A stretch of DNA of 64,000 nt from contig NZ_KE386569.1 in the NCBI RefSeq assembly GCF_000427625.1, forward strand, positions 2,167,754 to 2,231,753. Direction: 5' to 3'. A program made the position numbers and the translations under genes. Below are positions 14,147 through 60,219 of this stretch, one piece after another. The notes under the pieces are model-generated. The model did no database searches and was not told the origin of the DNA. It worked only from the letters and a program-made list of their open reading frames with translations. This DNA is from Methylobacter luteus IMV-B-3098. Lineage in GTDB: Bacteria > Pseudomonadota > Gammaproteobacteria > Methylococcales > Methylomonadaceae. Position 1 is the first letter of the stretch. Each line of letters begins with the position of its first letter.

Positions 14147-14154
14147 ATAAAGTC

Positions 14155-17587: not shown

Positions 17588-17615
17588 AAAATTAATTCAT
17601 GTTAATACCTGTTAG

Positions 17616-18391: not shown

Positions 18392-18517
18392 GCTAAACGA
18401 TTATTCCAGCAGAACATACGTCTTCTGAAGAATCCTTCTTTATCGTTTAGCATCTAACCCAGAGAATGGCGTATTTCAATAGGAAAACTACTGATAATCC
18501 ATTTGAGACCAGATAGC

Positions 18518-19069: not shown

Positions 19070-19084
19070 AGTCACCTCAATCAT

Positions 19085-20975: not shown

Positions 20976-21044
20976 AGGAAAATTTGATCGCCGCGGTCTG
21001 AATTTCAGCTGCGGACCCTAGGATTATGTACCGGAAATTTCATA

Positions 21045-21485
21045 TTACCAGCTGCCTGTGTTTTGCATGGAAAACCATGGCTCTTCAGGAGCCAGCGCAT
21101 GGCCTTTTTGCAACAATTCGATGGAGATGTTGTCGGGTGAACGCACGAATGCCATATGGCCGTCACGCGGCGGACGGTTAATCGGCACCCCCGCATCCAT
21201 CAGTTTCCGGCAGGTTTCGTAAATATTGTCGACTTCAAACGCCAGATGACCGAAATTGCGCCCGCCGTCATAGTCCTCGGCATCCCAGTTATAGGTCAGT
21301 TCGATCAGCGGCGCATGGTTCTTGGCGGCCAGTTCGGCATCGCGCGGCGCGTGCAGATAAACCAGCGTATAACGGCCGTTGTCGTTGTCTATCCGGCTGG
21401 ATTCGACCAGCCCCAGCTTGTTGCAGTAGAAATCGAGCGATTCGTCCAGGTCATGGACCCGGACCATGGTATGTAGATAACGCAT
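21045..21485 (-). CDS. gloA: Lactoylglutathione lyase (glyoxalase I)
   Basis: A 146-residue metalloenzyme that converts the methylglyoxal-glutathione hemithioacetal to S-lactoylglutathione. The four metal ligands of the E. coli-type enzyme are in place: His5, Glu62 (LIELTYN), His80 (NFGHLAFEV) and Glu123 (SIELLQKG). The short form without the eukaryotic insert suggests Ni/Co preference. A strong ribosome site (AAGGAGAT) precedes the ATG. Cytoplasmic. A second VOC-fold gene lies at 25709. Confidence 0.95.
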
Positions 21486-21532
21486 AGCAATGATCTCCTT
21501 CTAAATGGATTAAACGGCTTGGGCCATGCTAC

Positions 21533-22399: not shown

Positions 22400-22406
22400 G
22401 AATTTT

Positions 22407-22964
22407 TTAGATTTGTCCGTATCTGAAACAATCGATCGTATGATCATTGACCATGCCGACAGCCTGCATATAGGCATAGCAGATTGTGCTGCCCACGAAT
22501 TTAAAGCCTCGCCGTCTTAAATCCTTGCTCATTGAATCGGATGCCGGCGTCGTCACGGGGATTTGGGCCGCGCTTTTCCAGGCATTGCGCACAGGCCGGC
22601 CGTCAACAAATTGCCAGATATACTCATCGAATGCGCCGAACTCCTGCCGGACCTTTAAAAACGCCTGAGCATTGCTGACAGCGGCATGCACCTTCAGTTT
22701 GTTCCTGACGATTTCCGGGTTGCTCAATAGCGTATCGATTTTTATAGCGTCATAGCCGGCCATCGCCTCGGCATCAAAATCATCGAAAGCATTTCTATAG
22801 CCGGCGCGTTTTTTCAAAATCGTGGCCCAACTCAAGCCGGCCTGCGCGCCTTCCAGTATCAGAAATTCAAAAAGCAGCCGGTCGTCATGCACAGCGACGC
22901 CCCATTCAAGATCATGGTATTGTTCTTCCAGGGGGCCTGCCAGTGCCCATGCACATTTTTCCAT
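22407..22964 (-). CDS. tag: DNA-3-methyladenine glycosylase I
   Basis: A 185-residue base-excision enzyme removing 3-methyladenine from alkylated DNA. The zinc snap seen in E. coli Tag is exactly kept: Cys4, His17, His175 and Cys179. The core segment EGAQAGLSWATILKKR carries the substrate-pocket residues, and SDSMSKDLRRRGFKFVGSTI is the helix-hairpin region. Length is normal. Confidence 0.95.
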   Translation of the reverse strand: MEKCAWALAGPLEEQYHDLEWGVAVHDDRLLFEFLILEGAQAGLSWATILKKRAGYRNAFDDFDAEAMAGYDAIKIDTLLSNPEIVRNKLKVHAAVSNAQAFLKVRQEFGAFDEYIWQFVDGRPVRNAWKSAAQIPVTTPASDSMSKDLRRRGFKFVGSTICYAYMQAVGMVNDHTIDCFRYGQI

Positions 22965-29036: not shown

Positions 29037-29051
29037 TGGCACAGCAATTGC
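29037..29051 (+). promoter_or_regulatory. Sigma-54 (RpoN) promoter
   Basis: TGGCAC-agcaa-TTGC has the full -24/-12 consensus, with exactly 10 bp between the GG and GC dinucleotides. It lies about 197 bp upstream of the prepilin ATG. Pilin genes in many proteobacteria use RpoN with PilR. No competing sigma-70 promoter was evident. Confidence 0.8.
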
Positions 29052-29247: not shown

Positions 29248-30192
29248 ATGAAGCATTATAACAATATGGCTCGCCAGGCGGGTATGACTTTAATTGAATT
29301 GACCGTTGTCTTGTTGATCCTGATCGGCTTGGCGGGCTTGCTGGTGCCTTATGTCGGCAGCTTTACCCAGACCACCCATGACAGCACCAACTCCAATAAC
29401 CTGACGCAGTTGAACAATGCGGTGGGTCGTTACGTAACTGACAAAAATAAACTGCCGCCGCATGTGGACACGTTAATCAACGGTCTGGCTGATGCGGGCA
29501 GCGCTGGCGGTGCTTGTACAGGTGCAACAGCAGGCGCAGTCTATTGCGGCTTGGCGAATCCAGGCTTGTTCACCCCAGCGCCTTTTGCTGCTGACTCTAT
29601 TCAGGCACAATCGCTAGCAGCCTCCGGAATCAACATGGCGGTAGCAAACGATCCTAACGCCCAAAATAAAACGTTTGGCACCAGCACAGGCATGCTTATG
29701 CTTGGTGACCCGGCTGGTGGCGCATATTCTGACGGTTCTGCTATATTTGCAGCTGTTCAGGGCGTTGCAGGGGTCGGCGGTATGGTTGGTGGTATGCTTG
29801 ATTACACAGACTCTACTGAAGCTCATCTAGCACAAGCATTAGGTCGCGACGCTATGGTCTACAGCGACACTTGCTATGATTACATTGCTGTTGGTATTGG
29901 CGACAACAATGAATTGATCCAGTCCACGATGGCAGCTGCACCTGTGTACTTCCCTCAAGACGCTCAATTTGGCCCTCAGCAAGCTTACGGCCACTTCATT
30001 GCAATCTTGCAGGTAGATGCCGCTAACACCGGTAACGATGCGATCAATACTACCCGCGCGTGCTCCACTATCACCGAACCAGCGAAGTTTTTGGGCATAG
30101 TAGCTAACGTGCCAACTACTGAATCAGCTGCCTTGGTTGGTGTAAATACGCTGCTGGCTCAAGGCTGGAACAATAGAGCTGCTGCTAACTAA
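29248..30192 (+). CDS. Type IV prepilin-like protein (first of three)
   Basis: A 314-residue prepilin. A short basic leader ends in G, followed by MTLIELTVVLLILIGLAGLL, the hydrophobic N-terminal helix with Glu5 needed for assembly and for cleavage/methylation by a PilD-type peptidase. The globular part is large, Ala/Thr-rich and has four or five cysteines (GGACTG, VYCGL, DTCYDY, RACST). Ribosome site AGGGAG. It stands alone after a sigma-54 promoter and before the machine genes, so it is likely the abundant pilin. No PilD is in the window. Confidence 0.88.
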   Translation: MKHYNNMARQAGMTLIELTVVLLILIGLAGLLVPYVGSFTQTTHDSTNSNNLTQLNNAVGRYVTDKNKLPPHVDTLINGLADAGSAGGACTGATAGAVYCGLANPGLFTPAPFAADSIQAQSLAASGINMAVANDPNAQNKTFGTSTGMLMLGDPAGGAYSDGSAIFAAVQGVAGVGGMVGGMLDYTDSTEAHLAQALGRDAMVYSDTCYDYIAVGIGDNNELIQSTMAAAPVYFPQDAQFGPQQAYGHFIAILQVDAANTGNDAINTTRACSTITEPAKFLGIVANVPTTESAALVGVNTLLAQGWNNRAAAN

Positions 30193-41802: not shown

Positions 41803-42234
41803 ATGGCATATGACGATTTGCGTAAAGGCCGGGTCAGCATCCCGGGCCAGATTTATTTCATCACCACGGTAACGGCCAACCGGGAACCATTATTCCGGTG
41901 TTTGTACACGGGCCGTTTGGTAGTCGATGAAATGCGCCGAAGCGAAATTGAAGGCCGTCTGACCACATTGGCCTGGGTATTGATGCCGGATCATCTGCAT
42001 TGGCTGGTAGCCTTGGGAGACCATACTGAATTATCGGCAGCGGTCAAAATCTTCAAGGCATCGTCGGCGCGGCGCGTCAATGATTTCCTGCAGCGACGCG
42101 GATCGCTCTGGCAAAGGGCTTATTACGATCATGCCCCGCGCGGCAATGAGGATATTAAAGAAATCGCGCGCTATATCGTGGCCAATCCGTTGCGCGCGGG
42201 TTTGGCCGAACACATTGGCGACTATGCCTTATAG
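41803..42234 (+). CDS. REP-associated tyrosine transposase (RAYT, Y1 family)
   Basis: A 143-residue single-strand transposase of the IS200-like TnpA/RAYT family. It has the HUH metal site in MPDHLHWLV (near residue 65) and the catalytic tyrosine in ARYIVANPLRAGL (near 125). The GQIYFITTVTANREPLF start is typical of RAYTs. RAYTs cut and mobilise REP palindromes in E. coli and Pseudomonas. Here palindrome pairs flank the gene on both sides within 120 bp, and the same cores are spread through the window. It separates two prepilin genes. Confidence 0.9.
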   Translation: MAYDDLRKGRVSIPGQIYFITTVTANREPLFRCLYTGRLVVDEMRRSEIEGRLTTLAWVLMPDHLHWLVALGDHTELSAAVKIFKASSARRVNDFLQRRGSLWQRAYYDHAPRGNEDIKEIARYIVANPLRAGLAEHIGDYAL

Positions 42235-43996: not shown

Positions 43997-45427
43997 TTAC
44001 GATGCCTCCTGTGCGATTTCCGGCGACATGGCGTTCGCACCGCCCCCCAGCGCCTTGTAAAAGGCGATCAGATTCGTGGAAGTGTCCGCTTCGGAGCGGG
44101 CCAGCTCGATTTCGGCGGCGTACAGGGCGCGCTGGGCGTCCAGCACGTCCAGAAAGGTAATGACCCCTTCCTGATACCGCAACTGGGACAGCCGGACGGA
44201 TTCGCGCTGGTCCGCCACGGCGCGGGCCAGGGTTTGCCGGCGCACCTCTTCCTTCAGGTAGCGGGTCAGACTGGTTTCGGTCTCGCGAAGCGCTTCGAGC
44301 ACCGCCTTTTCATAGGCCAGATAGGCTTCCTTTTGCTGCGCCTCGGTCAGATCGATGCCGGCCTGGATGCGGCCGAAATTGAGCAGCGGCTGCAGCAGGT
44401 TGGCTGCGGTGCTGTAGGAGAAGGCCGCCGACTTGAACAGGCTTTCGATGTCGGTGTTGCGCAGCCCCAGAAAGGCCGACAGCGAGACTTTCGGAAACAG
44501 TTCTGCAATGGCCGCGCCTTGCATGGCGGTCGCGGCCGCGAGCCGACGCTCGGCGACGTGAATGTCGGGTCGCCAACGAATGGTTTCGGCTGGCGAAGTC
44601 AGCAGTTGCTGCGCCGGCGCCACCGGCAGTGCGGCTGATGCATTCAGTCCGCCGTCCAGTGCGCCGGGTTGCCGGCCGACCAGCACTTCCAGCTGCCTGA
44701 GCGTGGCAATCACCTCGGCTTCCAGTGCGGGAATCTGGGCGCTCGTGGTCTCGGCCTGAGCCCTCGCCCTCACTACGTCATGCCGCGTGCCGACGCCTTC
44801 ACTGAACAGTCTATCAGTCAGCTTCAGGGTGTGCCGCTGCGCTTCCAGGTTCGAGCGCGTGATCCGCAGCTGGTTCTGCAGGTTGCGGTATTCCACGTAA
44901 GAGCGGGCCAGTTCGGCCGTGAGCGTCACCAGCGCCTGGGCGTGTTCCTCCTTCGCCGCCTCCAGATCGGCGCTGGCCGACTCCAGTCGGCGCTGCAGGC
45001 GGCCGAACAGGTCGAGTTCCCATATGGCGTCGAAGCCCAGCTCGAACAGATTGAAACGGACACCTTTCGCATAAATGGGGGAAAGGTTCTGATGCCGCTG
45101 GCCGCCCGCACTGATGTCAATCTGCGGGAAAAGCTCGGCCCGGACCGAACGGCGATCGGCGCGGGCTTGATCGATGCGCGTCAGTGCTATCTTGAGGTCC
45201 AGATTGTCGGCCAGCGCCAGTTCCATCAGCCGATCCAGCTGGGGATCGCCGAAACTCTTCCACCAGCTCCTCAGTTTCTCCGGGGTTATGGGTTTCAGGC
45301 CCGCGCCGGCGTCCTTTTCAGCCTGCCAGCGATCCTGGAGGGCGAAAGAGGGTTCACGGTAATCGGGTCCCATGGTGCATCCGGCCAGACTGCACAGCAG
45401 CATTAAATAGCCGGCCTTAAGCGCCAT
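43997..45427 (-). CDS. NodT/OprM-type outer-membrane efflux lipoprotein
   Basis: A 476-residue TolC-superfamily channel. A lipoprotein signal ends in SLAGCTMGPDYREP, followed by two outer-membrane efflux repeats with long helices (QLDRLMELALADNLDLKIAL; RWRPDIHVAERRLAAATAMQ; RYQEGVITFLDVLDAQRALY). It forms the trimeric exit duct of tripartite pumps. Its ATG lies inside the last codons of the megasynthase gene (11-bp overlap), so the two are translationally coupled. This strongly suggests that it exports the pathway's product, probably with the HlyD/MFS pair at 55853-58516. Confidence 0.92.
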   Translation of the reverse strand: MALKAGYLMLLCSLAGCTMGPDYREPSFALQDRWQAEKDAGAGLKPITPEKLRSWWKSFGDPQLDRLMELALADNLDLKIALTRIDQARADRRSVRAELFPQIDISAGGQRHQNLSPIYAKGVRFNLFELGFDAIWELDLFGRLQRRLESASADLEAAKEEHAQALVTLTAELARSYVEYRNLQNQLRITRSNLEAQRHTLKLTDRLFSEGVGTRHDVVRARAQAETTSAQIPALEAEVIATLRQLEVLVGRQPGALDGGLNASAALPVAPAQQLLTSPAETIRWRPDIHVAERRLAAATAMQGAAIAELFPKVSLSAFLGLRNTDIESLFKSAAFSYSTAANLLQPLLNFGRIQAGIDLTEAQQKEAYLAYEKAVLEALRETETSLTRYLKEEVRRQTLARAVADQRESVRLSQLRYQEGVITFLDVLDAQRALYAAEIELARSEADTSTNLIAFYKALGGGANAMSPEIAQEAS

Positions 45428-48400
45428 AGTAGTGCCCTTCCGGAAGTTCCGGGCTGGAGCAGTGCCCGAGCTTCAGTTCTTTCAGCCATTGCGAGCAATA
45501 AGGTTCGGCGACGACGGAGAAATGGCCGCCGCCGGCATGGACGACCCTGACGTCGTCGTAGTAATCGTCCCAGCAGCCCGGTCTCAGCCAGCTCCCGCTC
45601 TCCTCGGCGATGATCAGCGTTGGCCGGTACGGCAATTTGCCGTGCGGATAGCGGTAATCGACGGCCAGCGACGTCTCGACCACATGCCACAAATCCAGAA
45701 AATAGTCGGGGGCAATGCCCATCGCCGTGTGCAGCAGTCTCGCCAATCCGGTTTTCCAGGCCGGATAAGGCTGGTTCTCCAGGATGGCTGTAATGGATGC
45801 CTCCTGGCCGGACGGATCGATGCCGGCATTTTCGAGAATCATCCGGCAGAAACCGATGACCGAGAGTTTGTCCATTTGCTTCGGCCAGCTGGCAATGCCG
45901 CTGTCTATCAACACCACGCTTTCGACCTGAATCCCGGTGTCCTGCAACTGCCTGAGCATCTCGTAAACCACGGTTCCGCCGTAGCTGTGGGCATAGAGCC
46001 TGATCGCGCCGCGCGGCTTAATGTCCCGGATCAGCGCGATGTTGTGGGCGGCCATTTCCTCCATCGAGCCGGCCGGCGCGCTGCCGGCGTAACCTTTCAT
46101 TTGCAGGCCGTACACCGGGCCGCTATCGCCGATTTGGGCCGCCAGTTGATGATAGCCGTCGCTCAGCCCCGGCATGCCCGGAATGATGAAGGTCGGAATG
46201 CCGTCGCGCAGTCTGGCGACACAGGGCGAGCCGGCCGGTTTTTCGCCGGCGTCGCCGATGCGGTCGGCCAGTTCGCGCACGGTCGGACATTGGATGATGT
46301 CGGCAACGCCGATTTGCGAGGACGGCAGTTGCTGATTGATTTTGTTGGCCAACTGTATCGACAGCAGGGAGTGGCCGCCAAGCTCGAAGAAGTTATCGTT
46401 GAGTCCGACGCGCGCAAGACCGAGCACGTCCTCCCAGATGCGGGCCAGTTCTCGTTCGACCGGGGTTTGCGGCGCGGCATAGTGCTCGCCGGCGTCGAAT
46501 TCAACCGGTGTCTGCTCCAGCTGCTTGCGGTCGATCTTGCCGTTGCTGGTCAGCGGCAAGGCTTCCAGACGGAAGAATCCGGCCGGCAGCATATAATCGG
46601 GCAGGCGGCGGCGCAATTGCTCGCGCAGTCCGTCTGCACCGATGGCCGCCGCGTCGGCCGTGTAATAGACCACCAGGCGGCCGTCGCCGGAACGGGGTCT
46701 TGCGATGACCGCTGCGGCGCTTTTCACGCCCGGCAACTCGGTCAGCGCATTTTCGATCTCGCCCAGTTCGACCCGGAAGCCGCGAATTTTGACCTGGTGA
46801 TCGGTTCTGCCCACATAGGCCAGCGTGCCGTCCGGCAGCCAGCGCGCCAGATCGCCGGTTTTGTACAGCTTGCCGGGCGCGTAAGGGTTGTCGATAAACT
46901 TCTCGGCGGTCAGCTCCGGATTGTTCAGATAACCCAGCGCCAGCCCCTCGCCGGCGATATGCAATTCGCCTGCTACGCCTATCGGCAATAGATCAAGGTG
47001 TTTGCCCAGCACATACAGGCGGGTGTTGGCGATGGGTTTGCCTATGGTCAGGCGCTGACCGGCGCCAAGCTCGGCGATCGCGGCATTGACGGTGTATTCG
47101 GTTGGGCCGTAGGCATTGAATAGCCTGACGCCGCGGTCCTGCACGGCTTGCAGCGTCGCCTCTGGCAGCGCCTCGCCGCCGAAGGAGATCAGGCGCAGCT
47201 GGCTGAATAGCTGCTGTTGCCGCTCCGGCTCCAGCGCGGCTATCACGCCGTAGAACTGCGGCGGGAGATTGAGTATCGTGACGCCGTTGTCGACGACGAC
47301 CCGATAGAAATTGTCCACTTCGATATCGGCGTCCTGACGGATCACGATGCCGGCGCCGGCCAATAAATACGGAAAGATTTCCTCCACCGACATATCGAAG
47401 CTCAGCGAGGCGAACTGCAGGATTCTGTCCTGGTCGGTAATGCCGTATTTTACGGTCATCGCATGGCAAAGATTCACCAGAGACCGGTGGGCGATCACCA
47501 CGCCTTTCGGGTTGCCGGTGCTGCCGGACGTGTAGATCACATAGGCCGGGTCCTGTGGACCGACCTCGCGGCGCAGTTCGATGTTACGGGGTATCTGATC
47601 GGTCCAGGCAGGGTCATCGACAGCCAGGGCCCGGCAGCCGCAGTCTGCTAATATGCCGGACAGATGCGGCTGCAGATGGGACTGGGTCAGCAAAAGGCTC
47701 ACACAGCCATCGGTCAGCATATAGCGGATTCTGTCCTCGCCGTTATGCGGATCGATGGGCAGGTAAGCCGCGCCGGCACGCAGCACACCCAGCACCGCAA
47801 CGATCATGTCCGCCGATCTATGCATGCACACCGCGACCAGCCGATCCGGCCCGATCCCCTGGGCTTGCAGGTAGATCGCCAGACGACGGCTGCGCTCCAA
47901 CAGGGCGCCATAGGCGATTTGCCGGCCGGCGAAAATCAGAGCCGTGTTGTCCTGCGTCCGGGCCGCCTGAGCTTCGAACAGTTCGTGAACGCAGTGCTGG
48001 CTCGGAAACTCGCTGGCGGTATCGTTGAAGCCATCCAGCAACAGGTTCAGCTCTTGTTCCGGCAGGCAGTCGTATTCGTCGATGCGCCGGCCGGGATCTT
48101 CGGCGATAGCCGCTATCAGCGTTTCCAGATAGCCCAGATGACGGCGGATCGTGTCGGCCTCGAACAGGTTGCGCTGGTATTTCAGATGCAGTTCCACGGT
48201 ATCGCGAAAATCGTAGACTTCCAGCATATAGCTGTCCATCGTTTCCTGATACACGTCGTAGCACAGCTCGACGCCGCCCAGCCGTTCATGGGTTCCGAGG
48301 ATGCCGTCGAAGATATTCTGGTAGGTAAAAGACACCGAAAACGGCACTTCGCTCGGGTTGAGCAGCGTGAGTCCCAGTTCGGGCATTATCCTGGCGAAAG

Positions 48401-51311
48401 GATAATGGGCGTGATCCAGTCCCTCGGCGAGGTTCGCGCCTATCTGTTTCACCAGTTGCAGAAAGGTATCGTCCGGGCGGATCCGGGTTCTGACGATCAT
48501 CAGGTTGATATAGCAGCCGATCGTATTTTCATGGCGCTGCATCGGCCTGCCGGCCACCGGCATATTCAGTGCGATATCGTCTTCCGCGCTCAGCCGGTGA
48601 ATCAGGATATTGAATACGCCCAGCAACAGCGCCGACAGGTTCTGGTTCAGCATGGACCCGAGATATTTCAGCGCGCCCAGCATGGCGCTGTTCAGCGTCA
48701 GCGTTTCGCAGCCCATTCCTAAATCGGGCAGACCGGGCTGCGGCAGGGTATCGTAAGGCAGGGCGATGGTCGCCGGTACACCGGCCAGCCGGTTTTTCCA
48801 CCAGGCCAGGTCGTCTTGGGCCCGAGCGCAGTTCAGATAAGCGCGTTCCCAGGCGATGAAGTGGAAAAAGGCCGTGTCGGGCGCTTGCGCGGCAGGCTTG
48901 CCGCCGGCGGCCAGGACGTGGTATTTGTCCCAGAACTCGTTGGCGAACAACATGCCGGAAAAGCCGTCGATGACGATGTGGTGTATGGCGAAGAACACAT
49001 AGTAGCGCTGGTCTGCCGGGCACTCCACGGTATAGAGCCGCAGCGGCGGGTCGGTTTCCAGATTGAACGGCTGCCGCAGCAACTGGCGCAAAAACGGCGC
49101 CGTCTGCTGGTTTTCGGGCAGGGCCAGGTGCTCGATCACAAGGTTGTCGGCGGCGCTGCCTGCCATTTGAACGACGTCTTCTCCCGATGATTGATAGCGG
49201 CAGCGCAGCAGCGGGCGCTCTTCCAGCACCGCAAGCAGGGCCAGTCGCAGGCAGGCGGGGTCAGCCGGGGCTTTGAGCCGGAAAATCAGCGGGACGTTAA
49301 AATCGGTGGACTCGGGAAAGGTTTCCTGGATATACCACAGGCCTTTCTGGGTTTCCGACAAGGGCTGCGGCGCCGCCAGTACGCTCGCCGCCGTTCGCGG
49401 CGTTTCAGGCGCAACGTTGTCCGTGTTGCGCGTTTGCCGCGCCAGCATGTCGAAAAATTCGCCGAAGTTTTTGGCGCCCATCGCCTGGGCGACCTTGATG
49501 TTTAAGCCCAGCCGTTCGTTCAGGCGTTTGATGAATTGCACCACCTGGATCGAATCGAAGCCGTAATGCACGGGCGATAGCGAACGGTCGATTTCCGGCA
49601 GGTCTCTGCCGAACACCTCGGCGACCACACTCGCTAACGCTGCCTCGACATCCCCGGTCAAGCCGGCGGCTTGCGCTGGCTGAGCGCTTATCGCATCGCC
49701 AAACGGTTGAGTGAGAGTTGCGCCTGAATCAACCGCCGCTTGTTCGCAATACTCCTCCAGCACGATGTGCGCGTTGACCCCGCCGATCGCGTAACTGTTG
49801 AGCGCTACCCGGCGCGGGCCGGCGTCGTTTTGCCAGTGCGTGGCGCTGTCTTGCAGAATCAGGGCATGGTCGCTCGGCAATTCGCGATTGATTTCACCGA
49901 GGCCGGCTATGCCCGGTATGGCCTGGTGCTCCAGGGCTTTGACGGCCTTGATCAGCGAGGCCATGCCCGATGCGACTTCCGGATGGCCGATGCTGGGCTT
50001 GATGCTGCCGACGAACCAGGTTTTGTCGGGATTCGCGCTCAACAGCCGGTAAGCGTCGCTGATGGCGGTCAATTCCAGGGCGTCGGCCAGCGTATTGCCG
50101 ATGCCGTGGGCTTCCACATAATCTATGGTATCCGTGCTGACGCCGGCCTGGGCGATGCTGGTCGTTATGGCGTGTTTCAGCCCTTGCACGTTGGGGGCTT
50201 CCAGCGAATAGCCGCGGCCGCCGTGATGCACTGCGCTGCTCTTGATGAGCGCCAGAATCCGGTTGCCGTCCGCCAGGGCCTGCGCCAGCGGCTTGATGAT
50301 GACGACGCCCGCGCCTTCGCTGCGGACGAATCCGTCGGCTTCCTCGCAGAAGCTGCGCGTCCGGTTACGGCTGCTCAGCAGCTGGTCGTAAAGACCATGC
50401 ATTGCCATGGACGCGAATTCGTCGGCGTCTATGAGGTTGACGGCGCCGACGATGGCTTGTCCGCATTCGCCGGAGCGGATGCTTTGCACGGCACGGTGCA
50501 GCGCGACGTGGACACTGGTGCAAAACGTATTGATCACCTCGCTGGGGCCTTTCAGGTCGAATTGAAAGGATATCTGGTTGGCGATGGGAACCCGATACGG
50601 CTGACTGCCATCATCGCGGCAACCCAGGCGATCAACGAACGATTGAGCGGCTATGAAAACGCCGGTCGTATCCGTAGAGAGCATCCGCCCGGTAATTTGG
50701 TAATCGTTCTGTACCTGCGCAAGAAGAAAGCTCAGAAGTTGCAGCTGGCGATCGGCGATGTCGGTGTCTTGGGACGGGGCGCTTTCGCCGATACTACCGT
50801 ATCCGAACGCGACTGCCGGCGCGCATGGATCCAGCTGCAGACATTCGCCGGCCAAGGCTTTCTCCCAGAGCGATTCCGCGTCATCGGCGCCGGGAAACAG
50901 TCCGGCTAGGCCGATAATGGCGATCGGTTGCGTCCGGGCCGAGGACAGCGGATCGCTGCTGATGGGCGGCGGCGTGATTGCGGCGACGGCCTCGGTTTGT
51001 TCGGACGGTGCCGTGTTTAACGGCAGGATATCGTCGATTAAATAGTCAACCAGCAAATCCATCCGAGGATGATCGAACAGCAAAGTCGTGCGAAGTGAAC
51101 AGGACAGATTCGATTCCAGTCTGGCTTTGAATTCCACGGCTTGCAGGGAATCGGTGCCCAGTTCGATAAAGTTTTGATCGGGCGTTATGTCTTCCGGACT
51201 GTCCATTCCGATAAAATTCGCCAGTAACTCGCGAATATAGGCGTTCAATATCGGCTTTCTTTGGATCGGCTGGGCTTGTTGTAACGTGGTGATAATCGAG
51301 CTGGGATACAT
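45417..51311 (-). CDS. Hybrid PKS-NRPS: ACP-KS-ACP-C-A-PCP-TE
   Basis: A 1964-residue megasynthase. Parts by residue: ACP1 with Ser55 (ELGTDSLQ); KS 129-520 with active Cys in NTFCTSVHVALH (near 263) and both His motifs (VEAHGIGN; GSIKPSIGH); ACP2 (GFDSIQVV near 584); C 650-1090 with HHIVIDG; A 1120-1600 with YTSGSTGNPKG; PCP (ELGGHSLLS near 1646); TE with AHSYGG and GGGHFSVV. There is no AT, KR or reductase. Aligned to GrsA, the A-pocket residues read D-M-E-N-I-F-A-V-N-K, close to ornithine/hydroxyornithine codes. An ATG at 51311 is chosen because the longer frame runs through a palindrome. Neighbours suggest an isonitrile lipopeptide synthetase with ACP1 in the ScoB role. Confidence 0.92.
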   Translation of the reverse strand: MYPSSIITTLQQAQPIQRKPILNAYIRELLANFIGMDSPEDITPDQNFIELGTDSLQAVEFKARLESNLSCSLRTTLLFDHPRMDLLVDYLIDDILPLNTAPSEQTEAVAAITPPPISSDPLSSARTQPIAIIGLAGLFPGADDAESLWEKALAGECLQLDPCAPAVAFGYGSIGESAPSQDTDIADRQLQLLSFLLAQVQNDYQITGRMLSTDTTGVFIAAQSFVDRLGCRDDGSQPYRVPIANQISFQFDLKGPSEVINTFCTSVHVALHRAVQSIRSGECGQAIVGAVNLIDADEFASMAMHGLYDQLLSSRNRTRSFCEEADGFVRSEGAGVVIIKPLAQALADGNRILALIKSSAVHHGGRGYSLEAPNVQGLKHAITTSIAQAGVSTDTIDYVEAHGIGNTLADALELTAISDAYRLLSANPDKTWFVGSIKPSIGHPEVASGMASLIKAVKALEHQAIPGIAGLGEINRELPSDHALILQDSATHWQNDAGPRRVALNSYAIGGVNAHIVLEEYCEQAAVDSGATLTQPFGDAISAQPAQAAGLTGDVEAALASVVAEVFGRDLPEIDRSLSPVHYGFDSIQVVQFIKRLNERLGLNIKVAQAMGAKNFGEFFDMLARQTRNTDNVAPETPRTAASVLAAPQPLSETQKGLWYIQETFPESTDFNVPLIFRLKAPADPACLRLALLAVLEERPLLRCRYQSSGEDVVQMAGSAADNLVIEHLALPENQQTAPFLRQLLRQPFNLETDPPLRLYTVECPADQRYYVFFAIHHIVIDGFSGMLFANEFWDKYHVLAAGGKPAAQAPDTAFFHFIAWERAYLNCARAQDDLAWWKNRLAGVPATIALPYDTLPQPGLPDLGMGCETLTLNSAMLGALKYLGSMLNQNLSALLLGVFNILIHRLSAEDDIALNMPVAGRPMQRHENTIGCYINLMIVRTRIRPDDTFLQLVKQIGANLAEGLDHAHYPFARIMPELGLTLLNPSEVPFSVSFTYQNIFDGILGTHERLGGVELCYDVYQETMDSYMLEVYDFRDTVELHLKYQRNLFEADTIRRHLGYLETLIAAIAEDPGRRIDEYDCLPEQELNLLLDGFNDTASEFPSQHCVHELFEAQAARTQDNTALIFAGRQIAYGALLERSRRLAIYLQAQGIGPDRLVAVCMHRSADMIVAVLGVLRAGAAYLPIDPHNGEDRIRYMLTDGCVSLLLTQSHLQPHLSGILADCGCRALAVDDPAWTDQIPRNIELRREVGPQDPAYVIYTSGSTGNPKGVVIAHRSLVNLCHAMTVKYGITDQDRILQFASLSFDMSVEEIFPYLLAGAGIVIRQDADIEVDNFYRVVVDNGVTILNLPPQFYGVIAALEPERQQQLFSQLRLISFGGEALPEATLQAVQDRGVRLFNAYGPTEYTVNAAIAELGAGQRLTIGKPIANTRLYVLGKHLDLLPIGVAGELHIAGEGLALGYLNNPELTAEKFIDNPYAPGKLYKTGDLARWLPDGTLAYVGRTDHQVKIRGFRVELGEIENALTELPGVKSAAAVIARPRSGDGRLVVYYTADAAAIGADGLREQLRRRLPDYMLPAGFFRLEALPLTSNGKIDRKQLEQTPVEFDAGEHYAAPQTPVERELARIWEDVLGLARVGLNDNFFELGGHSLLSIQLANKINQQLPSSQIGVADIIQCPTVRELADRIGDAGEKPAGSPCVARLRDGIPTFIIPGMPGLSDGYHQLAAQIGDSGPVYGLQMKGYAGSAPAGSMEEMAAHNIALIRDIKPRGAIRLYAHSYGGTVVYEMLRQLQDTGIQVESVVLIDSGIASWPKQMDKLSVIGFCRMILENAGIDPSGQEASITAILENQPYPAWKTGLARLLHTAMGIAPDYFLDLWHVVETSLAVDYRYPHGKLPYRPTLIIAEESGSWLRPGCWDDYYDDVRVVHAGGGHFSVVAEPYCSQWLKELKLGHCSSPELPEGHYYGA

Positions 51312-51390
51312 AACGGTTGATGGCTTATTGAAATGAAAAACCAAGGATAAGGTGAGAAATAACTTCCCTGAATTTTGATGAGCAACAGAT

Positions 51391-51452
51391 GTAGGGGCGA
51401 CTTTAGTCGCCCAGGGCGAATACCCGAAGGGCATAAATGAATTCGCCCCTAC
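51391..51452. repeat. REP-like palindromes between the FcoT-like and megasynthase genes
   Basis: GTAGGGGCGACTTTAGTCGC with CC (51391-51412), and a GGGCGAATACCC...GAATTCGCCCCTAC element (51414-51452). The core GGCGAA is a variant of the other families. It sits in the 292-bp operon gap and may affect message stability between the two genes. Confidence 0.75.
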
Positions 51453-51603
51453 ATGATTTCATCGACAAATCGGAAAGTTATTTTTAACCGAATCCTAAGG
51501 CCTTGAAGGAACGTGCAGCAACCGTCGCCCATTTTCCGCGCCTGAAATCGGGAGGGGATGGCCCCATTTCAGGTTTCATGGAAAACGGGCGAGGCTTCGG
51601 TCT

Positions 51604-52146
51604 TTATGGCGCCAGTACTGCGAGTGTCACTTCTCCCTTACTTCTGCCGTTGGCGTCATCGTGAAAACGGCAGTAGGTTTTGATGAACGTACAGGTGGAC
51701 GTCTTCTTAATGCTATTGATGCCATAAGTGCCGTAAAACTGCTTGGCGTTCAGTTGGCTCTGGTAGCTTGAGCTGAGTTTGGCAATCAAGACGTTAGGAA
51801 GCTGTTTCTCGAAAAACGTCTCCATGTCGTAATCTTCCGATAATTCCGGTATCAGGGCGTGTTTAATGCAATGCGCCATATGCACGTAACAAATCTGGTT
51901 GAAGCAGATATTGAACTCAACGGCGTTGAAATGCCCGGTATTGTCGATATAGCAGGACTCGGGTATCGAGAATTCTCCATTCATGACCAGGTCTTGCGAA
52001 TCATTGCCTTCCGATTGCAGAAACCAGGCGTGTTTCAGGTAACGGCTGTGGTTGAAGTAAGGCTCCAGCACCTTGTTCATGAAACCATCGTCAATATCCG
52101 AAACGATGACGTTTTCCAGCGGGTCGACCATCCTTAGCATACTCAT
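51604..52146 (-). CDS. FcoT/ScoD-like thioesterase-fold protein
   Basis: A 180-residue protein, as long as M. tuberculosis FcoT (Rv0098). From memory of that sequence the match is strong: LEPYFNHSRYLKHAWF, GEFSIPESCYIDNTGHFNAV, CFNQICYVHMA, LNAKQFYGTYG and the ending GEVTLAVLA all have direct counterparts. In isonitrile lipopeptide pathways the ScoD/FcoT enzyme adds glycine to an alpha,beta-unsaturated acyl-ACP and releases the acid. Its ATG shares one base with the stop of the oxygenase gene (TAATG), so it is translationally coupled. No signal peptide. Confidence 0.88.
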   Translation of the reverse strand: MSMLRMVDPLENVIVSDIDDGFMNKVLEPYFNHSRYLKHAWFLQSEGNDSQDLVMNGEFSIPESCYIDNTGHFNAVEFNICFNQICYVHMAHCIKHALIPELSEDYDMETFFEKQLPNVLIAKLSSSYQSQLNAKQFYGTYGINSIKKTSTCTFIKTYCRFHDDANGRSKGEVTLAVLAP

Positions 52147-53048
52147 TATTCAATCCCCACATAAAACGGCAAATCGTCGTAGATGCCGATGCGGTACATT
52201 CTGCTGAATTCGCCCGGCTTGGCCTTGGAGCCTTTATGGATCAATGTACGGTTTTCCCAGATAATCATGTCGCCTTCCTCCCAGAAATGCGTGTGGATGA
52301 ATTTCGGCTGCTCGACGAATTCGAACAGAGCCTTCATCACCCGCTGATTTTCCTCATAGGACAGGCCGACCAGTCCGCTGGTGAAACCGCTGCTGATATA
52401 AAGGATTTTCTCGCCGGTCACCGGATGTTCAATGACGGCAGGATGGGCCTGTGGCGGACATTCTGCTTTGAAGTTCTCGATGAGTTCCTCAATCGAACGG
52501 TCGATGTCACACGGTTGCACTTTATAGCGCGGCCAGGCTTCCTGCATGGCCATCCTGCCATCCACATAACGTCTCAGATCATTGGGGAGTTCGCGGTAGA
52601 CGCGGGCCATGTCGATGTACGAGGTTTCCCTGGCCGATTTGGGGAAGAAGATAGGGCGTACCGAGGTAAAGGACAGAGGATGTTTCTCGAAAGAGCAATC
52701 CGTATGCCAGTAGCGGCCTGTACCGGAAACACCGAATTTTTTGCCGTCTTCGTTGAGGTTGTTGGAAACGAAAATTTCGGGGTAATCAGGGTGGTGATAA
52801 TTCGGTTGAAAATAAACCTGAGGCCGGCCTACCGCCCTGGTGAAGTTGACTTGTTCCTGTTCGTTCATGTCAAGACGCTGACCGCGCATGACAACCAGTT
52901 TATTCCGGTAGAGTAATTGCCGGAGCATTTCCGCTTCGGGACAACCCGGGGTGAAGGTCGTAACATCCCAGCCATGCACCTCGGCACCGATTTTCCCTGG
53001 CGCGGCTTCGGTGATGGATACTTGATTTTCTGATACCACTGCGTTCAT
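52146..53048 (-). CDS. TauD-type Fe(II)/2-oxoglutarate oxygenase, ScoE-like (isonitrile-forming candidate)
   Basis: A 300-residue TauD/TfdA-family oxygenase. The iron triad is His115-x-Asp117 (GRYWHTDCSF) and His271 (TLIHKGS). The 2-oxoglutarate Arg286 (RMYRIGI) stands 15 residues after the last His, the same spacing as His295/Arg310 reported for ScoE. ScoE and Rv0097 turn an N-carboxymethyl amino acid into an isonitrile by oxidative decarboxylation. A taurine or alkylsulfonate dioxygenase role is less likely because an FcoT-like gene follows directly and no sulfonate transporter is present. Cytoplasmic. Confidence 0.9.
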   Translation of the reverse strand: MNAVVSENQVSITEAAPGKIGAEVHGWDVTTFTPGCPEAEMLRQLLYRNKLVVMRGQRLDMNEQEQVNFTRAVGRPQVYFQPNYHHPDYPEIFVSNNLNEDGKKFGVSGTGRYWHTDCSFEKHPLSFTSVRPIFFPKSARETSYIDMARVYRELPNDLRRYVDGRMAMQEAWPRYKVQPCDIDRSIEELIENFKAECPPQAHPAVIEHPVTGEKILYISSGFTSGLVGLSYEENQRVMKALFEFVEQPKFIHTHFWEEGDMIIWENRTLIHKGSKAKPGEFSRMYRIGIYDDLPFYVGIE

Positions 53049-53094
53049 GATTTATTGTTCCTTGTATGCTCTAGATTGTGAATTGACTGACTGA

Positions 53095-54684
53095 CTAACT
53101 AACCTGTCTGTCCTGGTCCTGCCAGAACGGCGCCCTCAGCACCCGTTTAAGGACTTTACCGCTCGGATTTCTCGGCAAGGCATCGACAAACGTTATCGAT
53201 TTAGGCACTTTGAAATCCGCGATACGGCTTCTGGCGAAATCAATCAACTCCCGTTGCTTGATGACGCCGCCCTGCCGCGGCACGACAAAGGCTTTTACAA
53301 CCTCCCCCCATTTTTCATCGGGTATCCCGATGACAGCGACTTCGGCAACCGCCTCATGCTCGCTTAGTACGGCTTCAATTTCGGCGGGGAACAGGTTTTC
53401 TCCCGCGTAGATGATCATGTCCTTGATCCTGTCGCAGACATAGACGTAGCCCTCCTCATCCATATAACCTACGTCGCCGGTATGTACCCAGCCATCGACC
53501 AGTGTTTGGGCGGTAGCGGATTCATTCTTCCAATAGCCCAGCATGTTGCTGGGCGATTTAATGCAAATTTCGCCGCTGCGCCCTGCCGGCAACGTCCGGC
53601 CTTGCCCGTCGACGATCTTGATTTCGACGCCGGGCAAGGGCTTGCCGGCAGCTTTCATCCTCGGATTGCCCTCCGGGCAATGATCGGTGGGGCGCAGACA
53701 CACCGCCATATTGCCGGTCTCGGTCAGGCCATATATCTGGAAGAAGTCGCAGCCGAAGATTTCCATGGCCTTGCGCAGCAGTGACGGGGAGATCGGCGAG
53801 CCGCCATAGACCAGTCCCTTGATTGACGATAAATAGGTTTTCGCGCAGCTGGGTTCTTCCAGCATCAGCTGGATCATCGATGGCACCAGCACGGCTTTGG
53901 TGACTTGGTGCTGCTCGATTAACTGTAAAGCCTGCCAGGCGACGAAGGCGTCGACGATGACGCCGGCAGCGCCGACCGCATAACCTTGCATGGCCCACCA
54001 GAGCCCGCCTATGTGAAATTGCGGCAGGGACAGCAGCAGGGTATCGCCCGGATTCAGCGACATCCACGGGTCGCCGGCCTTCCGCATGCCTTGCATCAGT
54101 CTGAAAAAACTGTAGTTTGCGAGCTGCACGCCTTTCGGCCGCCCGGTCGTGCCGCTGGAATACATCTGCACGGCCACATCGTCGGCGCAGTATTCGCAAG
54201 CGATCGGGGTAGCCGGTTTCGCCGTTTTCCAGTCCTCGTAGAGCGACCATTCCGGATGCGCACCGTCCAGGGCGACGATCGTCCGGACAGAGGCTAGGTG
54301 CGGAACCAGAGACTCCACTAACGGGAAAAACTCCTGCGCCACAAACAGCACTTCAGTTTCGCTGTCATTCAGGATATAAAGTATCTCAGGAAGGGCCAGC
54401 CGCCAGTTCAGGTCGACCAGCACCGCTTTGATCTTGGCGCAGCCGAACAGAATCTCATAGTGAGCGATGGTGTCCTTGCCGAGTATCGCCACTCTGGAGC
54501 CGGACTTAACGCCGGCCGCCGTCAATCCGTGGCCGACTTGATTGCTGCCTAGATCGATCTGCAGAAACGTTTGTCGATGGTTACCCGATAGGAAGGCGAC
54601 GGCATCCGGCCTCGCTTTGGCTTGTTGGATACACATCTCGGCAAGGGTCTGAAACTCACTGGATTTCATGGGGGAAAGACTCAT
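53095..54684 (-). CDS. Fatty acyl-CoA/acyl-ACP ligase (ScoC/FadD10-like)
   Basis: A 529-residue ANL-superfamily ligase. It has the AMP-binding loop YSSGTTGRPKGVQ near 175, the A5-type YGLTETGN near 320, GWVHTGDVGYMDEEGYVYV with CDRIKDMIIYAGENL near 410-440, and the C-terminal lysine in PRNPSGKVLKRVL near 515. It adenylates a carboxylic acid and transfers it to CoA or an ACP phosphopantetheine. As first gene of the operon, 46 bp before the oxygenase gene, it probably loads the fatty or isonitrile acid onto ACP1 of the megasynthase. ATG at 54684 or 54669. Confidence 0.88.
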   Translation of the reverse strand: MSLSPMKSSEFQTLAEMCIQQAKARPDAVAFLSGNHRQTFLQIDLGSNQVGHGLTAAGVKSGSRVAILGKDTIAHYEILFGCAKIKAVLVDLNWRLALPEILYILNDSETEVLFVAQEFFPLVESLVPHLASVRTIVALDGAHPEWSLYEDWKTAKPATPIACEYCADDVAVQMYSSGTTGRPKGVQLANYSFFRLMQGMRKAGDPWMSLNPGDTLLLSLPQFHIGGLWWAMQGYAVGAAGVIVDAFVAWQALQLIEQHQVTKAVLVPSMIQLMLEEPSCAKTYLSSIKGLVYGGSPISPSLLRKAMEIFGCDFFQIYGLTETGNMAVCLRPTDHCPEGNPRMKAAGKPLPGVEIKIVDGQGRTLPAGRSGEICIKSPSNMLGYWKNESATAQTLVDGWVHTGDVGYMDEEGYVYVCDRIKDMIIYAGENLFPAEIEAVLSEHEAVAEVAVIGIPDEKWGEVVKAFVVPRQGGVIKQRELIDFARSRIADFKVPKSITFVDALPRNPSGKVLKRVLRAPFWQDQDRQVS

Positions 54685-54894
54685 TCTTATAGGCCCGTTC
54701 TTGGAGGAAATAGATATTGCTTAACCTGTCAGCAATAGCTGTGCCAATCGACAATCCAACCCGGATTGCCGGGCGGAAAAACAAGCCGAGAGCCAGATTT
54801 GGCGGGGAGTGTACCGATTTTAAACAGCCCTGTTCGAGCATGAGTCGCACAACTTTATCCGGAAAATTCCCGGCGCATTCATCGATTTCCCGGC

Positions 54895-59394: not shown

Positions 59395-60219
59395 TTAAAA
59401 AATCATAGACAATGTAGCGTTATCTTTTTCAAGTCTATTTTTTGCGTATCTATTTTTAGCAGCGGCTGACATTTTTGCTTTTGATTCTTCCGATATTATC
59501 TTTCCCTTATTACCCTCTGAAATTTTTCGCTTTGTTTCTTCTGAGTGTTGGTAATCAATGCGCTTGCCTATACGAGATAGTGCTATTTTTTGTTTTGTAT
59601 TCTCTGAATGTGATTTCCCTGTCATGCCAGTAACTTTATCAGCACGGCTTTTAGTAAGATTGTACTTTTGCTCTTCTGTTAGCTTCCTGCCTGTTAAAGA
59701 GGCTGATATTTTTGCTTTTGTGTCTTCTGAAATAATTTTTCCTTTTTGTTTTCCTATAAGAGAAGCTGATATTTTCTTTTTTGTTGCTTCAGATGCTTTT
59801 TTACCTAAGTTTGCATTCCTTAACTTCTGCTTTGTTTCTTCTGAAATAGGCCTTCCGATTCTTCCTTTCGTTGTTTTAGATATTTTCGCTTTAGTTTCTT
59901 CTGAAACAATAAAAGACCTGCCAAGCGTACCTTCTCCACCAGCGGTCAAATTGTATCCATTAGGTCCAAACGTATCATGTTCACGGATAGCCTCTATCTC
60001 AAGTCTTGGCAAATCGTCTGGATGAGCTATTGCAAGAACCTGCACTTCAAAAGAGTCCTCTCCATATTTCCTTATGGCGTTATAAATAGCTAACTTTCTG
60101 CCACTCCTTGAGGCACGGATATGTATTTTTATACGATGTTCAATGGAGTACTTAGTTATACCTATGTAAGACTTTCCGTTAGGAAATGTTAGCTTATAAA
60201 GTATTCCTGTTTCTTCCAT
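59395..60219 (-). CDS. GIY-YIG nuclease with NUMOD3 repeats (homing-type)
   Basis: A 274-residue free-standing nuclease. The GIY-YIG domain (residues 1-90) shows GILYKLTFPNGKSYIGITKY, the Arg in HIRASRSGR and the metal Glu in LEIEAIREHD. After it come at least six NUMOD3-type DNA-binding units of the form SEETKxKISxxxxGR. This is the architecture of phage T4 Seg and intron-encoded homing enzymes. It is distinctly AT-rich beside GC-rich ssb and topB, with an AGGTGA ribosome site. It lies 23 bp from ssb without breaking it. Confidence 0.9.
   Translation of the reverse strand: MEETGILYKLTFPNGKSYIGITKYSIEHRIKIHIRASRSGRKLAIYNAIRKYGEDSFEVQVLAIAHPDDLPRLEIEAIREHDTFGPNGYNLTAGGEGTLGRSFIVSEETKAKISKTTKGRIGRPISEETKQKLRNANLGKKASEATKKKISASLIGKQKGKIISEDTKAKISASLTGRKLTEEQKYNLTKSRADKVTGMTGKSHSENTKQKIALSRIGKRIDYQHSEETKRKISEGNKGKIISEESKAKMSAAAKNRYAKNRLEKDNATLSMIF

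What the first reader, a model, noticed from the sequence alone, without database searches (positions are those of the whole stretch)
45417..54684. Isonitrile-lipopeptide-type biosynthetic cluster in a gammaproteobacterium
Four adjacent minus-strand genes encode the five functions of the actinobacterial isonitrile lipopeptide pathway: acyl ligase (ScoC/FadD10), TauD-type oxygenase (ScoE/Rv0097), FcoT/ScoD-type protein, ACP (ScoB/Rv0100, here the N-terminal domain of the synthetase) and NRPS (ScoA/Rv0101). The FcoT-like protein keeps the TGHFNAVE...CFNQ block. The oxygenase keeps HxD, His and Arg with ScoE-like spacing. Such pathways make isocyano-acyl diamines that bind copper or other metals. 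I know of them mainly from Actinobacteria, so a gammaproteobacterial version with a different gene architecture would be new or little described.
Basis: partly seen in the sequence, partly recalled or inferred. Interest (0 to 1): 0.95.

Follow-up and report, generated by a model that had tools for sequence, protein, structure and literature searches.

The report
Methanotroph isonitrile copper-scavenger gene cluster
A methane-eating bacterium carries a gene cluster related to the one Streptomyces uses to make copper-binding isonitrile lipopeptides, but with a ketosynthase built into the synthetase; it is predicted to make and export a similar metal scavenger that likely returns through an outer-membrane receptor and is opened by a predicted exported enzyme, which would give methanotrophs a copper-gathering chemistry besides methanobactin.

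Summary
On the minus strand, 45417-54684 encodes an acyl ligase, a ScoE-like oxygenase, an FcoT/ScoD-like protein and a synthetase; the oxygenase falls on the ScoE side of a 100/99 split from TauD/TfdA and keeps ScoE's iron and substrate residues. The host is a Methylobacter-type methanotroph; FcoT occurs in 15 of 311 Methylococcales genomes. A sigma-54-type promoter site precedes the ligase in 13 of 13 Methylococcales loci, and export genes flank the cluster. In 8 of 15 carriers a TonB receptor gene adjoins a Tat-signal protein closest, among named solved proteins, to isocyanide hydratase; in Ca. Methylobacter oryzae this pair lies beside the cluster, and in two other loci the hydratase-like gene lies in it. 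Hydratase-like genes: 10 of 15 carriers, 14 of 296 others. I infer an isonitrile metallophore, probably for Cu(I), with re-uptake and ligand-destroying release; product, metal and release are untested. Against: ScoE's Arg195 is Gln here (R195Q gave no detected product in ScoE), and both key enzymes miss NCBIfam equivalog cut-offs. New variant of a known kind.

The parts
53095..54684 (-). acyl ligase (ScoC/FadD10-like), first gene of the operon
   Evidence: AMP-binding PF00501 1.5e-83 + PF13193; 45.5% identical to the ligase of the S. clavifer FcoT/ScoE cluster; FadD10 4ir7 among PDB hits, not the best
52146..53048 (-). ScoE-like Fe(II)/2-oxoglutarate oxygenase/decarboxylase, predicted isonitrile former
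   Evidence: NF049937 248.8 bits (cut-off 400), TauD 117.2; PDB ScoE 3.6e-59; residues; tree
51604..52146 (-). FcoT/ScoD-like enoyl-ACP glycyl adduct former
   Evidence: PF10862 9.5e-51; NF049938 137.8 bits, cut-off 250; PDB 5wsy 8.3e-29, Rv0098 2pfc 2.4e-19
45417..51434 (-). synthetase ACP-KS-ACP-C-A-T-TE (2005 aa in the longest frame)
   Evidence: Pfam domains; same order up to T in relatives
51024..51230 (-). ACP1 domain (residues ~69-137)
   Evidence: alignment
49710..50927 (-). embedded ketosynthase (residues ~170-575), Cys305, His443, His484 and Lys479 kept, no AT domain found
   Evidence: PDB neighbours AT-less/trans-AT KS
49410..49652 (-). ACP2 domain (residues ~595-675)
48039..49367 (-). 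condensation domain (690-1132), HHxxxDG present
   Evidence: motif read
46536..47978 (-). adenylation domain (1153-1633), pocket letters DMENSGAVNK by hand-anchored motifs
46257..46451 (-). carrier (T) domain (1662-1726)
45465..46190 (-). thioesterase domain (~1749-1990, end estimated), where the S. clavifer synthetase has a reductase
   Evidence: PF00975 7.3e-16; reductase PF07993 in S. clavifer NRPS
43997..45427 (-). outer-membrane efflux protein (OprM-type), overlaps the synthetase end
   Evidence: PF02321 7.7e-47; after the synthetase also in L002, L003, L006, L007, L027, not found in L005
55832..56878 (+). HlyD/EmrA-type membrane fusion protein, divergent
   Evidence: PF13437/PF16576; beside the ligase also in L002, L003, L005, L006, L007, L027
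56885..58516 (+). MFS exporter (EmrB-type)
   Evidence: PF07690 2.1e-46; same six loci
54732..54746 (-). sigma-54-type promoter TGGCACN5TTGC, 62 bases before the ligase ATG
   Evidence: exact match; 0-1 mismatch site 52-85 bases before the first in-frame ATG of the ligase in 13 of 13 Methylococcales loci with that stretch, in 0 of 3 other loci

Best explanation
This is a methanotroph cluster of the isonitrile-lipopeptide type that is predicted to make a beta-isocyanoacyl amino acid or peptide and to export it as a metal scavenger, likely for Cu(I). How it would work: (1) the ligase loads an enoyl (2,3-unsaturated) acid on ACP1 [inferred from ScoC]; (2) the FcoT-like protein adds glycine at the beta carbon [inferred from ScoD]; (3) the ScoE-like oxygenase oxidises and decarboxylates the glycine adduct to an isonitrile [inferred; catalytic residues shown]; (4) the embedded ketosynthase takes up the beta-isocyanoacyl chain and hands it to ACP2, by transfer or after one decarboxylative extension [position shown, reaction inferred]; (5) the single C domain acylates the amino groups of an ornithine- or lysine-like amino acid on T [inferred]; (6) the TE releases an acid or a ring instead of the alcohol made by the reductase type [inferred]; (7) EmrA/EmrB/OprM-type proteins export it [genes shown, cargo inferred]; (8) the TonB receptor brings back the metal complex and the Tat-signal isocyanide-hydratase-like protein hydrates the ligand in the periplasm, releasing metal near pMMO [genes and co-occurrence shown, function inferred].
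For: Enzyme identity. Tree: 7 TauD/TfdA rows split 100/99 from 20 ScoE-side rows. Residues in the 120 listed relatives (of 458 found): K176 and R140 120 of 120, Y79 and Y84 119, D117 and H271 120, H115 and R286 119, and never Arg at the TauD Arg266 position. Gene order kept. Sigma-54-type site before the ligase in 13 of 13 Methylococcales loci. TonB + hydratase-like pair beside the cluster in L006; hydratase-like gene in the cluster region of G392 and 27 bases after the synthetase frame in Rhodopirellula L009; TonB siderophore-type receptor beside the synthetase in Marinibactrum L008. Hydratase-like (E <= 1e-45) in 10 of 15 FcoT carriers against 14 of 296 others, Fisher p 2.4e-9; by genus 6 of 7 against 5 of 43, p 1.8e-4. 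S. clavifer cluster: ScoE, FcoT and ligase in one stretch with a heavy-metal P-type ATPase, PCu(A)C and a DJ-1/PfpI protein 39% identical to the own hydratase-like protein. Copper need: two AMO/PmoA-family loci; no MbnB over cut-off.
Against: No product, metal or expression data. Both key enzymes miss NCBIfam equivalog cut-offs (248.8 of 400; 137.8 of 250). ScoE Arg195, whose R195Q change abolished detectable product in ScoE (PMC7949033), is Gln here (16 of 16 rows; of 120 listed hits Q 101, T 13, R 4, K 2), and His299 of the proposed 2-oxoglutarate site is not kept. I saw no known copper gene beside the methanotroph clusters. In the own genome the TonB/hydratase pair is about 522 kb away, behind sigma-factor and FecR genes of a kind that usually serves iron. 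Five of 15 carriers (four of genus g287, one of g290) lack a hydratase-like hit at 1e-45, and 14 of 296 non-carriers have one. The KS has no AT in the cluster, and the Rhodopirellula synthetase has no KS, so the KS is not essential to every such cluster.
Confidence: 0.6

Rival explanations
1. The cluster makes the same scaffold but not an isonitrile: the oxygenase of this clade stops early or does another oxidation (for example an imine, formamide or hydroxylated glycine adduct), because the ScoE hydrogen-bond network is changed.
For: ScoE Arg195 is Gln in the window and in 101 of 120 listed relatives, and His299 is not kept; R195Q gave no detected product in ScoE (PMC7949033, Results part 2); family scores below the equivalog cut-off.
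Against: Y96, Y101, K193, R157, R310 and the iron ligands are kept in 119 or 120 of 120 listed relatives, Y97F still gave product in ScoE, and isocyanide-hydratase-like genes sit beside or inside related clusters.
Confidence: 0.2
2. It is an isonitrile product but not a copper carrier: an antibiotic, a signal, or an iron/zinc scavenger; the hydratase protects the maker and the TonB pair serves another siderophore.
For: The receptors of L006 and L008 score above the siderophore-receptor cut-off TIGR01783 (the own receptor was not run against it) and the own pair follows sigma-factor and FecR genes; papers give isocyanide hydratase a mainly defensive role (PMC10971408, PMC10792529 passages); only export genes flank the window cluster.
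Against: The pair recurs with the cluster and is physically beside it, or the hydratase inside it, in some genomes; methanobactin import in Methylosinus is also described with a FecIRA-like setting (PMC3621798 passages); the nrp diisonitrile cluster is induced by copper starvation and needed for growth in it in mycobacteria (PMC9600254 passages).
Confidence: 0.3
3. The embedded KS is a true elongation domain: it adds one malonyl unit, so the acyl chain is a delta-isocyano-beta-keto acid and the TE may close a tetramic-acid-like ring; the product would then be a different metal-binding class. (This can hold together with the best explanation, which leaves step 4 open.)
For: Cys, both His and Lys kept in 15 of 15 aligned KS sequences; closest solved KS are AT-less/trans-AT; Bacteroidota relatives have KS, DH and KR domains before the orthologous KS.
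Against: No AT, KR or DH in the window cluster; KS-catalysed transfer without extension is known in trans-AT systems (recalled); the N-terminal half of the KS is shortened (sequence).
Confidence: 0.3
4. The oxygenase and thioesterase are ordinary TauD and fatty-acid enzymes next to an unrelated NRPS.
For: Both belong to large families; database names of relatives include taurine dioxygenase.
Against: Tree, residue and profile results; gene order kept across genera and in two Planctomycetota.
Confidence: 0.03

Closest known systems
Actinobacterial isonitrile-lipopeptide clusters (scoABCDE, sfa, Rv0097-Rv0101; here read in Streptomyces clavifer plasmid L096)
   Same: acyl ligase, ScoE-like oxygenase, FcoT/ScoD-like protein, ACP and C-A-T synthetase together
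   Different: ACP fused; extra KS and ACP2 in the synthetase; TE in place of reductase; A-domain pocket DMENSGAVNK (S. clavifer reads DTEDIGTVVK by the same anchors, by eye); oxygenase clade with Gln for Arg195; Gram-negative export and TonB uptake genes
Methanobactin system (mbnABC, MbnT)
   Same: what it would work like: copper scavenger of methanotrophs with TonB import and, in Methylosinus, FecIR-type genes (PMC3621798 passages)
   Different: methanobactin is a modified ribosomal peptide; the own genome's MbnB hits are far below cut-off (best 54.1 of 325 bits)
Isocyanide hydratase (InhA/ICH, DJ-1 superfamily)
   Same: own protein L088:11850-12683 matches PfICH 3non E 7.7e-51; the nucleophilic Cys, and the Asp recalled as catalytic, are aligned
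   Different: has a twin-arginine motif and sits after a TonB receptor; best PDB hit is an unnamed ThiJ/PfpI protein (3ewn, 1.8e-65)
trans-AT PKS-NRPS hybrids
   Same: KS domain type
   Different: single KS between two ACPs, no KR/DH/AT, in a cluster with isonitrile-type enzymes
IsnA/IsnB isocyanide synthases (xanthocillin, rhabduscin type)
   Same: isonitrile product class
   Different: different enzyme family; none among the cluster's Pfam hits; own genome not searched for it

Membership tests
actinobacterial-type isonitrile-lipopeptide cluster | ScoE-type oxygenase (ScoE side of the TauD family, catalytic residues) | tested here: met
   but Arg195 is Gln and His299 not kept
actinobacterial-type isonitrile-lipopeptide cluster | NCBIfam equivalog cut-offs for ScoE and ScoD | tested here: not met
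   248.8 of 400 and 137.8 of 250 bits
actinobacterial-type isonitrile-lipopeptide cluster | FcoT/ScoD-family protein | tested here: met
   PF10862 171.9 bits, cut-off 27
actinobacterial-type isonitrile-lipopeptide cluster | acyl ligase, ACP and C-A-T synthetase together | tested here: met
actinobacterial-type isonitrile-lipopeptide cluster | terminal reductase domain | tested here: not met
   TE instead; reductase in S. clavifer
actinobacterial-type isonitrile-lipopeptide cluster | isonitrile product binding Cu(I) | not testable with these tools
   needs LC-MS and metal titration
TauD taurine dioxygenase | groups with TauD; TauD Arg266 for 2-oxoglutarate | tested here: not met
methanobactin system | MbnB above cut-off | tested here: not met
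   best 54.1 of 325 bits in the own genome
isocyanide hydratase (for the partner gene) | DJ-1/PfpI family with the Cys and Asp of PfICH | tested here: met
   the role of the Asp is recalled
isocyanide hydratase (for the partner gene) | hydration of isonitriles | not testable with these tools
   enzyme assay needed
trans-AT ketosynthase | nearest solved KS are AT-less; catalytic Cys-His-His | tested here: met
IsnA isocyanide synthase | IsnA-family gene | not tested
   own genome not searched for this family

The most novel reading that the evidence does not exclude
Methanotrophs of the order Methylococcales run a complete isonitrile copper cycle: a KS-containing ACP-KS-ACP-C-A-T-TE line makes an isocyanoacyl chalkophore under sigma-54 control, EmrAB/OprM exports it, a TonB receptor returns the copper complex, and a Tat-exported isocyanide hydratase destroys the ligand in the periplasm to free copper for pMMO; neighbours without the cluster keep only receptor and hydratase and take the scavenger from others.
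Probability: 0.3. Interest if true: 0.92.

Novelty: new variant of a known kind. Interest (0 to 1): 0.82.

Why it matters
Methanotrophs need copper for particulate methane monooxygenase, and how species without methanobactin obtain it is poorly understood (established knowledge). A second copper-scavenging chemistry, shared by enzyme family with Streptomyces and mycobacteria, would be directly testable by deleting one synthetase gene in a cultured strain. An exported hydratase that destroys the ligand would be a release step that I saw in no title or abstract start listed (20 of 40 and 20 of 28 papers); a 2018 paper on an isonitrile hydratase acting on diisonitriles in Streptomyces thioluteus is known to me from a reference list only and may touch on it. 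Genomes with only receptor plus hydratase suggest piracy among methanotrophs, which bears on methane removal where copper is scarce.

Tried and rejected
Considered and rejected: ordinary TauD plus unrelated thioesterase. KS as a dead remnant: Cys, both His and Lys kept in 15 of 15 (L009, whose synthetase has no KS, and the near-duplicate or partial L028 and L034 were left out of that alignment). Methanobactin: no MbnB over cut-off.

Led nowhere: AlphaFold2 of the oxygenase from 16 rows was poor (pLDDT 63.4) and is not used. A 16-base match between the FecI and HlyD upstream regions of the own genome is a repeated element (three copies in the window, one in L088, single copies in L002 and L042), not a regulatory link. 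A one-mismatch sigma-54-type site lies about 100 bases before FecI in the own genome and M. marinus, but none was found in the other stretches scanned (L093 FecI; TonB of L006, L092, L094, L095), and FecI of L090 and L091 was not located by the pattern: too weak to claim shared control. FcoT in samples of the class (1 of 369) and phylum (1 of 398) found only the own genome, so spread outside the order was not mapped this way. Harris et al. 2017 (PMC5502637) is not held. The chance figure for 13 of 13 promoters ignores relatedness and is not used. Distances to the ligase were counted from hand-set ends; one search recounts them. The ORF picker hid some genes under longer antisense frames; one search replaces it.

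Papers: PMC7949033 outline, abstract, passages and Results part 2 of 3; PMC9600254, PMC12914433, PMC10971408, PMC10792529, PMC13038864, PMC3621798, PMC11964084, PMC12810054 passages only; PMC12971057 searched, no term found; all others search listings only. Zhu et al. 2018: title in a reference list only.
Full report
Check of the observation. Pfam gives AMP-binding for 53095-54684, TauD for 52146-53048, FcoT for 51604-52146, and for 45417-51434 Condensation, AMP-binding, three carrier-protein stretches, both halves of a ketoacyl synthase and a thioesterase. NCBIfam's best models are ScoE (248.8 bits, cut-off 400; TauD 117.2) and ScoD (137.8 bits, cut-off 250). PDB: ScoE E 3.6e-59, TauD 8.4e-25; FcoT-like protein 5wsy 8.3e-29 and Rv0098 2.4e-19.

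Host. The window is part of a 5.03 Mb genome. Two loci match the AMO/PmoA family. FcoT is found in 15 of 311 Methylococcales genomes, in 7 of 50 genera, against 1 of 369 in a class sample and 1 of 398 in a phylum sample, the one being the own genome each time; it rang in 0 of 14 control genomes. Named relatives beyond the order are Marinibactrum, Rhodopirellula, Aquisphaera and a deltaproteobacterial MAG among 11 oxygenase loci, and Bacteroidota, Planctomycetota and Cyanobacteria among the 120 listed of 513 FcoT hits.

Oxygenase. Mapping onto ScoE: Y96, Y101, H132, D134, R157, K193, H295, R310 are kept; Y97 is Phe and H299 is Lys; R195 is Gln. In 16 rows (window and 15 relatives; the partial L011, and L009, L010, L012, L027 and L028 were not put in) the kept positions are invariant, and so are Phe80 and Gln178. 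In the 120 listed relatives (of 458) K176 and R140 are 120 of 120, Y79 and Y84 119; the Arg195 position is Q 101, T 13, R 4, K 2; the TauD Arg266 position is never Arg. PMC7949033 reports that K193 and R310 hold the substrate, that Y97F lowers and Y96F, Y101F and R195Q abolish detected product, and that ScoE lacks TauD's Arg266. So the site is ScoE-like with one changed residue that matters in ScoE. A 27-row tree of hand-chosen rows separates 7 TauD/TfdA rows from 20 ScoE-side rows at 100/99; the three Streptomyces rows are one group (100/100); the non-actinobacterial rows are not one clade in the best tree, because the deltaproteobacterial row falls outside (one clade in 10% of bootstrap trees); long branches are flagged.

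Synthetase. The KS shares Cys305, His443, His484 and Lys479 with 14 relatives (15 of 15; one Methylomonas copy has Ile after the catalytic Cys). Its N-terminal half is shorter than usual. Closest solved KS are largely AT-less/trans-AT domains by sequence and by a model of pLDDT 78.9. ACP-KS-ACP-C-A-T is kept in Methylomonas, G392 and Marinibactrum and in Aquisphaera; the Rhodopirellula synthetase starts at the second ACP and has no KS. Relatives named Bacteroidota or Pontimicrobium carry an extra KS, DH and KR in front: P0282, P0263. The window KS is 45-52% identical to the KS next to the C domain and 26-35% to the earlier KS domains (P0260, P0262, P0263, P0279, P0282). This places the window KS just after the carrier on which an enoyl chain would be made, which is where glycine addition and isonitrile formation would occur: the basis for step 4. 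One such protein, P0279, has the same longest-contig length (36,897) as FcoT protein P0064; for the other four I did not establish a linked FcoT. The A-domain letters are DMENSGAVNK in the window, L002, L003, L006, L027 and Marinibactrum, DMENVGGVNK in L005, DMENAGAVNK in L030 and L033; the pattern did not read the Methylomonas domains. They recall, from memory only, the hydroxyornithine-type code DMENLGLINK. The TE replaces the reductase seen in the S. clavifer cluster.

Neighbourhood. By tblastn over 19 loci, MFS-HlyD divergent from ligase-oxygenase-FcoT-synthetase is found in the window, L002, L003, L005, L006, L007 and L027, with the OEP after the synthetase in all of these but L005. Methylomonas-type loci (L028, L029, L031, L032) have two oxygenase genes; L029, L031 and L032 also show a second synthetase. 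G392 has a second synthetase running into an ABC ATPase, then ABC permease, hydratase-like gene, MMPL, LolA-like and DUF1302 proteins. A TGGCACN5TTGC site lies 62 bases before the ligase ATG. Sites with 0-1 mismatch lie 52-85 bases before the first in-frame ATG of the ligase in all 13 Methylococcales loci where that stretch was held, several of them close relatives, and in none of L008, L009, L010; L033 lacks the stretch. Such sites are rare (55 in 745,658 positions).

Uptake and release. Beside the cluster of Ca. Methylobacter oryzae (L006) lie a TonB receptor and a DJ-1/PfpI protein. The receptor passes the siderophore-receptor cut-off; the DJ-1 protein matches isocyanide hydratase 3non at 1.4e-53, and an unnamed ThiJ/PfpI protein 3ewn at 1.1e-71. 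In the own genome the same pair is at G000:C1:2744391-2747674, about 522 kb away, behind an ECF-type sigma factor and FecR. Adjacent pairs are shown in 8 of 15 carriers: G000, G447, G448, G449, G450, G425, G555, G624; in G458 both genes are on broken contigs, and in G392 the hydratase-like gene is in the cluster without that receptor. Over 311 genomes the hydratase-like protein (E <= 1e-45) is in 24: 10 of 15 FcoT carriers and 14 of 296 others, p 2.4e-9, and by genus 6 of 7 against 5 of 43, p 1.8e-4; relatedness is only partly removed by the genus count. Of the 24, 22 have a twin-arginine motif near the start, one does not (G537) and one is cut; the Cys motif is in 23 and beyond the cut in one. 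The carriers G530-G533 and G588 lack such a protein at this cut-off. In S. clavifer the FcoT/ScoE cluster stands with a heavy-metal P-type ATPase, PCu(A)C, a DJ-1/PfpI protein (39% to the own one), an MFS protein, a KAS III and an iron-type ABC importer.

What is known. The mycobacterial diisonitrile (nrp) cluster is induced by and needed under copper starvation (PMC9600254 passages). Isocyanide hydratases are usually given a defensive role. Searches of the held library listed no paper on such a cluster in a methanotroph, judged by title and abstract start: ScoE + Proteobacteria (2 of 2 listed), isonitrile lipopeptide/chalkophore (20 of 40), methanotroph + isonitrile (5 listed of 6), Methylobacter/NRPS/chalkophore (20 of 135), isonitrile lipopeptide/Gram-negative/genome mining (20 of 2,428), hydratase/chalkophore (20 of 28), copper acquisition/TonB/methanobactin/Methylobacter (20 of 20), methanotroph gene clusters (20 of 1,196), isonitrile/FcoT/phyla (15 of 5,250). 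Two methanotroph genome papers hold the word isonitrile 0 times in the main text. Subscription papers are mostly not held, so an earlier report cannot be excluded.

Judgement. That this is an isonitrile-type assembly line: about 0.75. That it serves copper: about 0.55. The mechanism as stated: 0.6 in outline, with steps 4, 6 and 8 the least certain.

Noticed in passing
L028, L029, L031, L032 (Methylomonas-type genomes): Two tandem ScoE-like oxygenase genes before FcoT, and (where the stretch is held: L029, L031, L032) a second synthetase; the two oxygenase copies differ from each other, so they may act on different chains or steps.
   Followed up: partly
L030/L037 (G392): Second synthetase runs from a thioesterase into an ABC ATPase, followed by ABC permease, hydratase-like gene, MMPL, LolA-like and DUF1302 genes: an alternative export route, perhaps for a lipid-like product.
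   Followed up: partly
L074-L087 (the 14 genomes without FcoT that have a hydratase-like hit): In 13 of the 14 loci a TonB receptor frame lies beside the hydratase-like gene with its Tat motif; L087 has neither. Possible takers of a foreign isonitrile scavenger.
   Followed up: partly
L096 (Streptomyces clavifer plasmid, 4373-22685): An FcoT/ScoE cluster on a linear plasmid with copper genes, a DJ-1/PfpI gene, a KAS III and an ABC importer.
   Followed up: partly
window 29037-29051 (+) and 29248-30192: A second exact sigma-54-type site about 210 bases before a pseudopilin-like gene at the head of a type II secretion/pilus-like gene run (about 29-43 kb; recognised by eye).
   Followed up: no
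window 42374, 25673 (-), 55469 (-); L088 7091: A 16-base repeat found beside a gene (41803-42234) that looks like a REP-associated transposase (recalled); likely REP-type elements.
   Followed up: no
window 59395-60219 (-): A repeat-rich protein that looks like a GIY-YIG/NUMOD homing nuclease (recalled), between a single-strand-binding protein and a topoisomerase-like gene.
   Followed up: no
L088 4556-5803: A PepSY_TM membrane protein near the own TonB/hydratase pair; such proteins are metal reductases in other systems (PMC13038864 passages), and similar frames lie near the pair in L074, L075, L089 and L091.
   Followed up: partly
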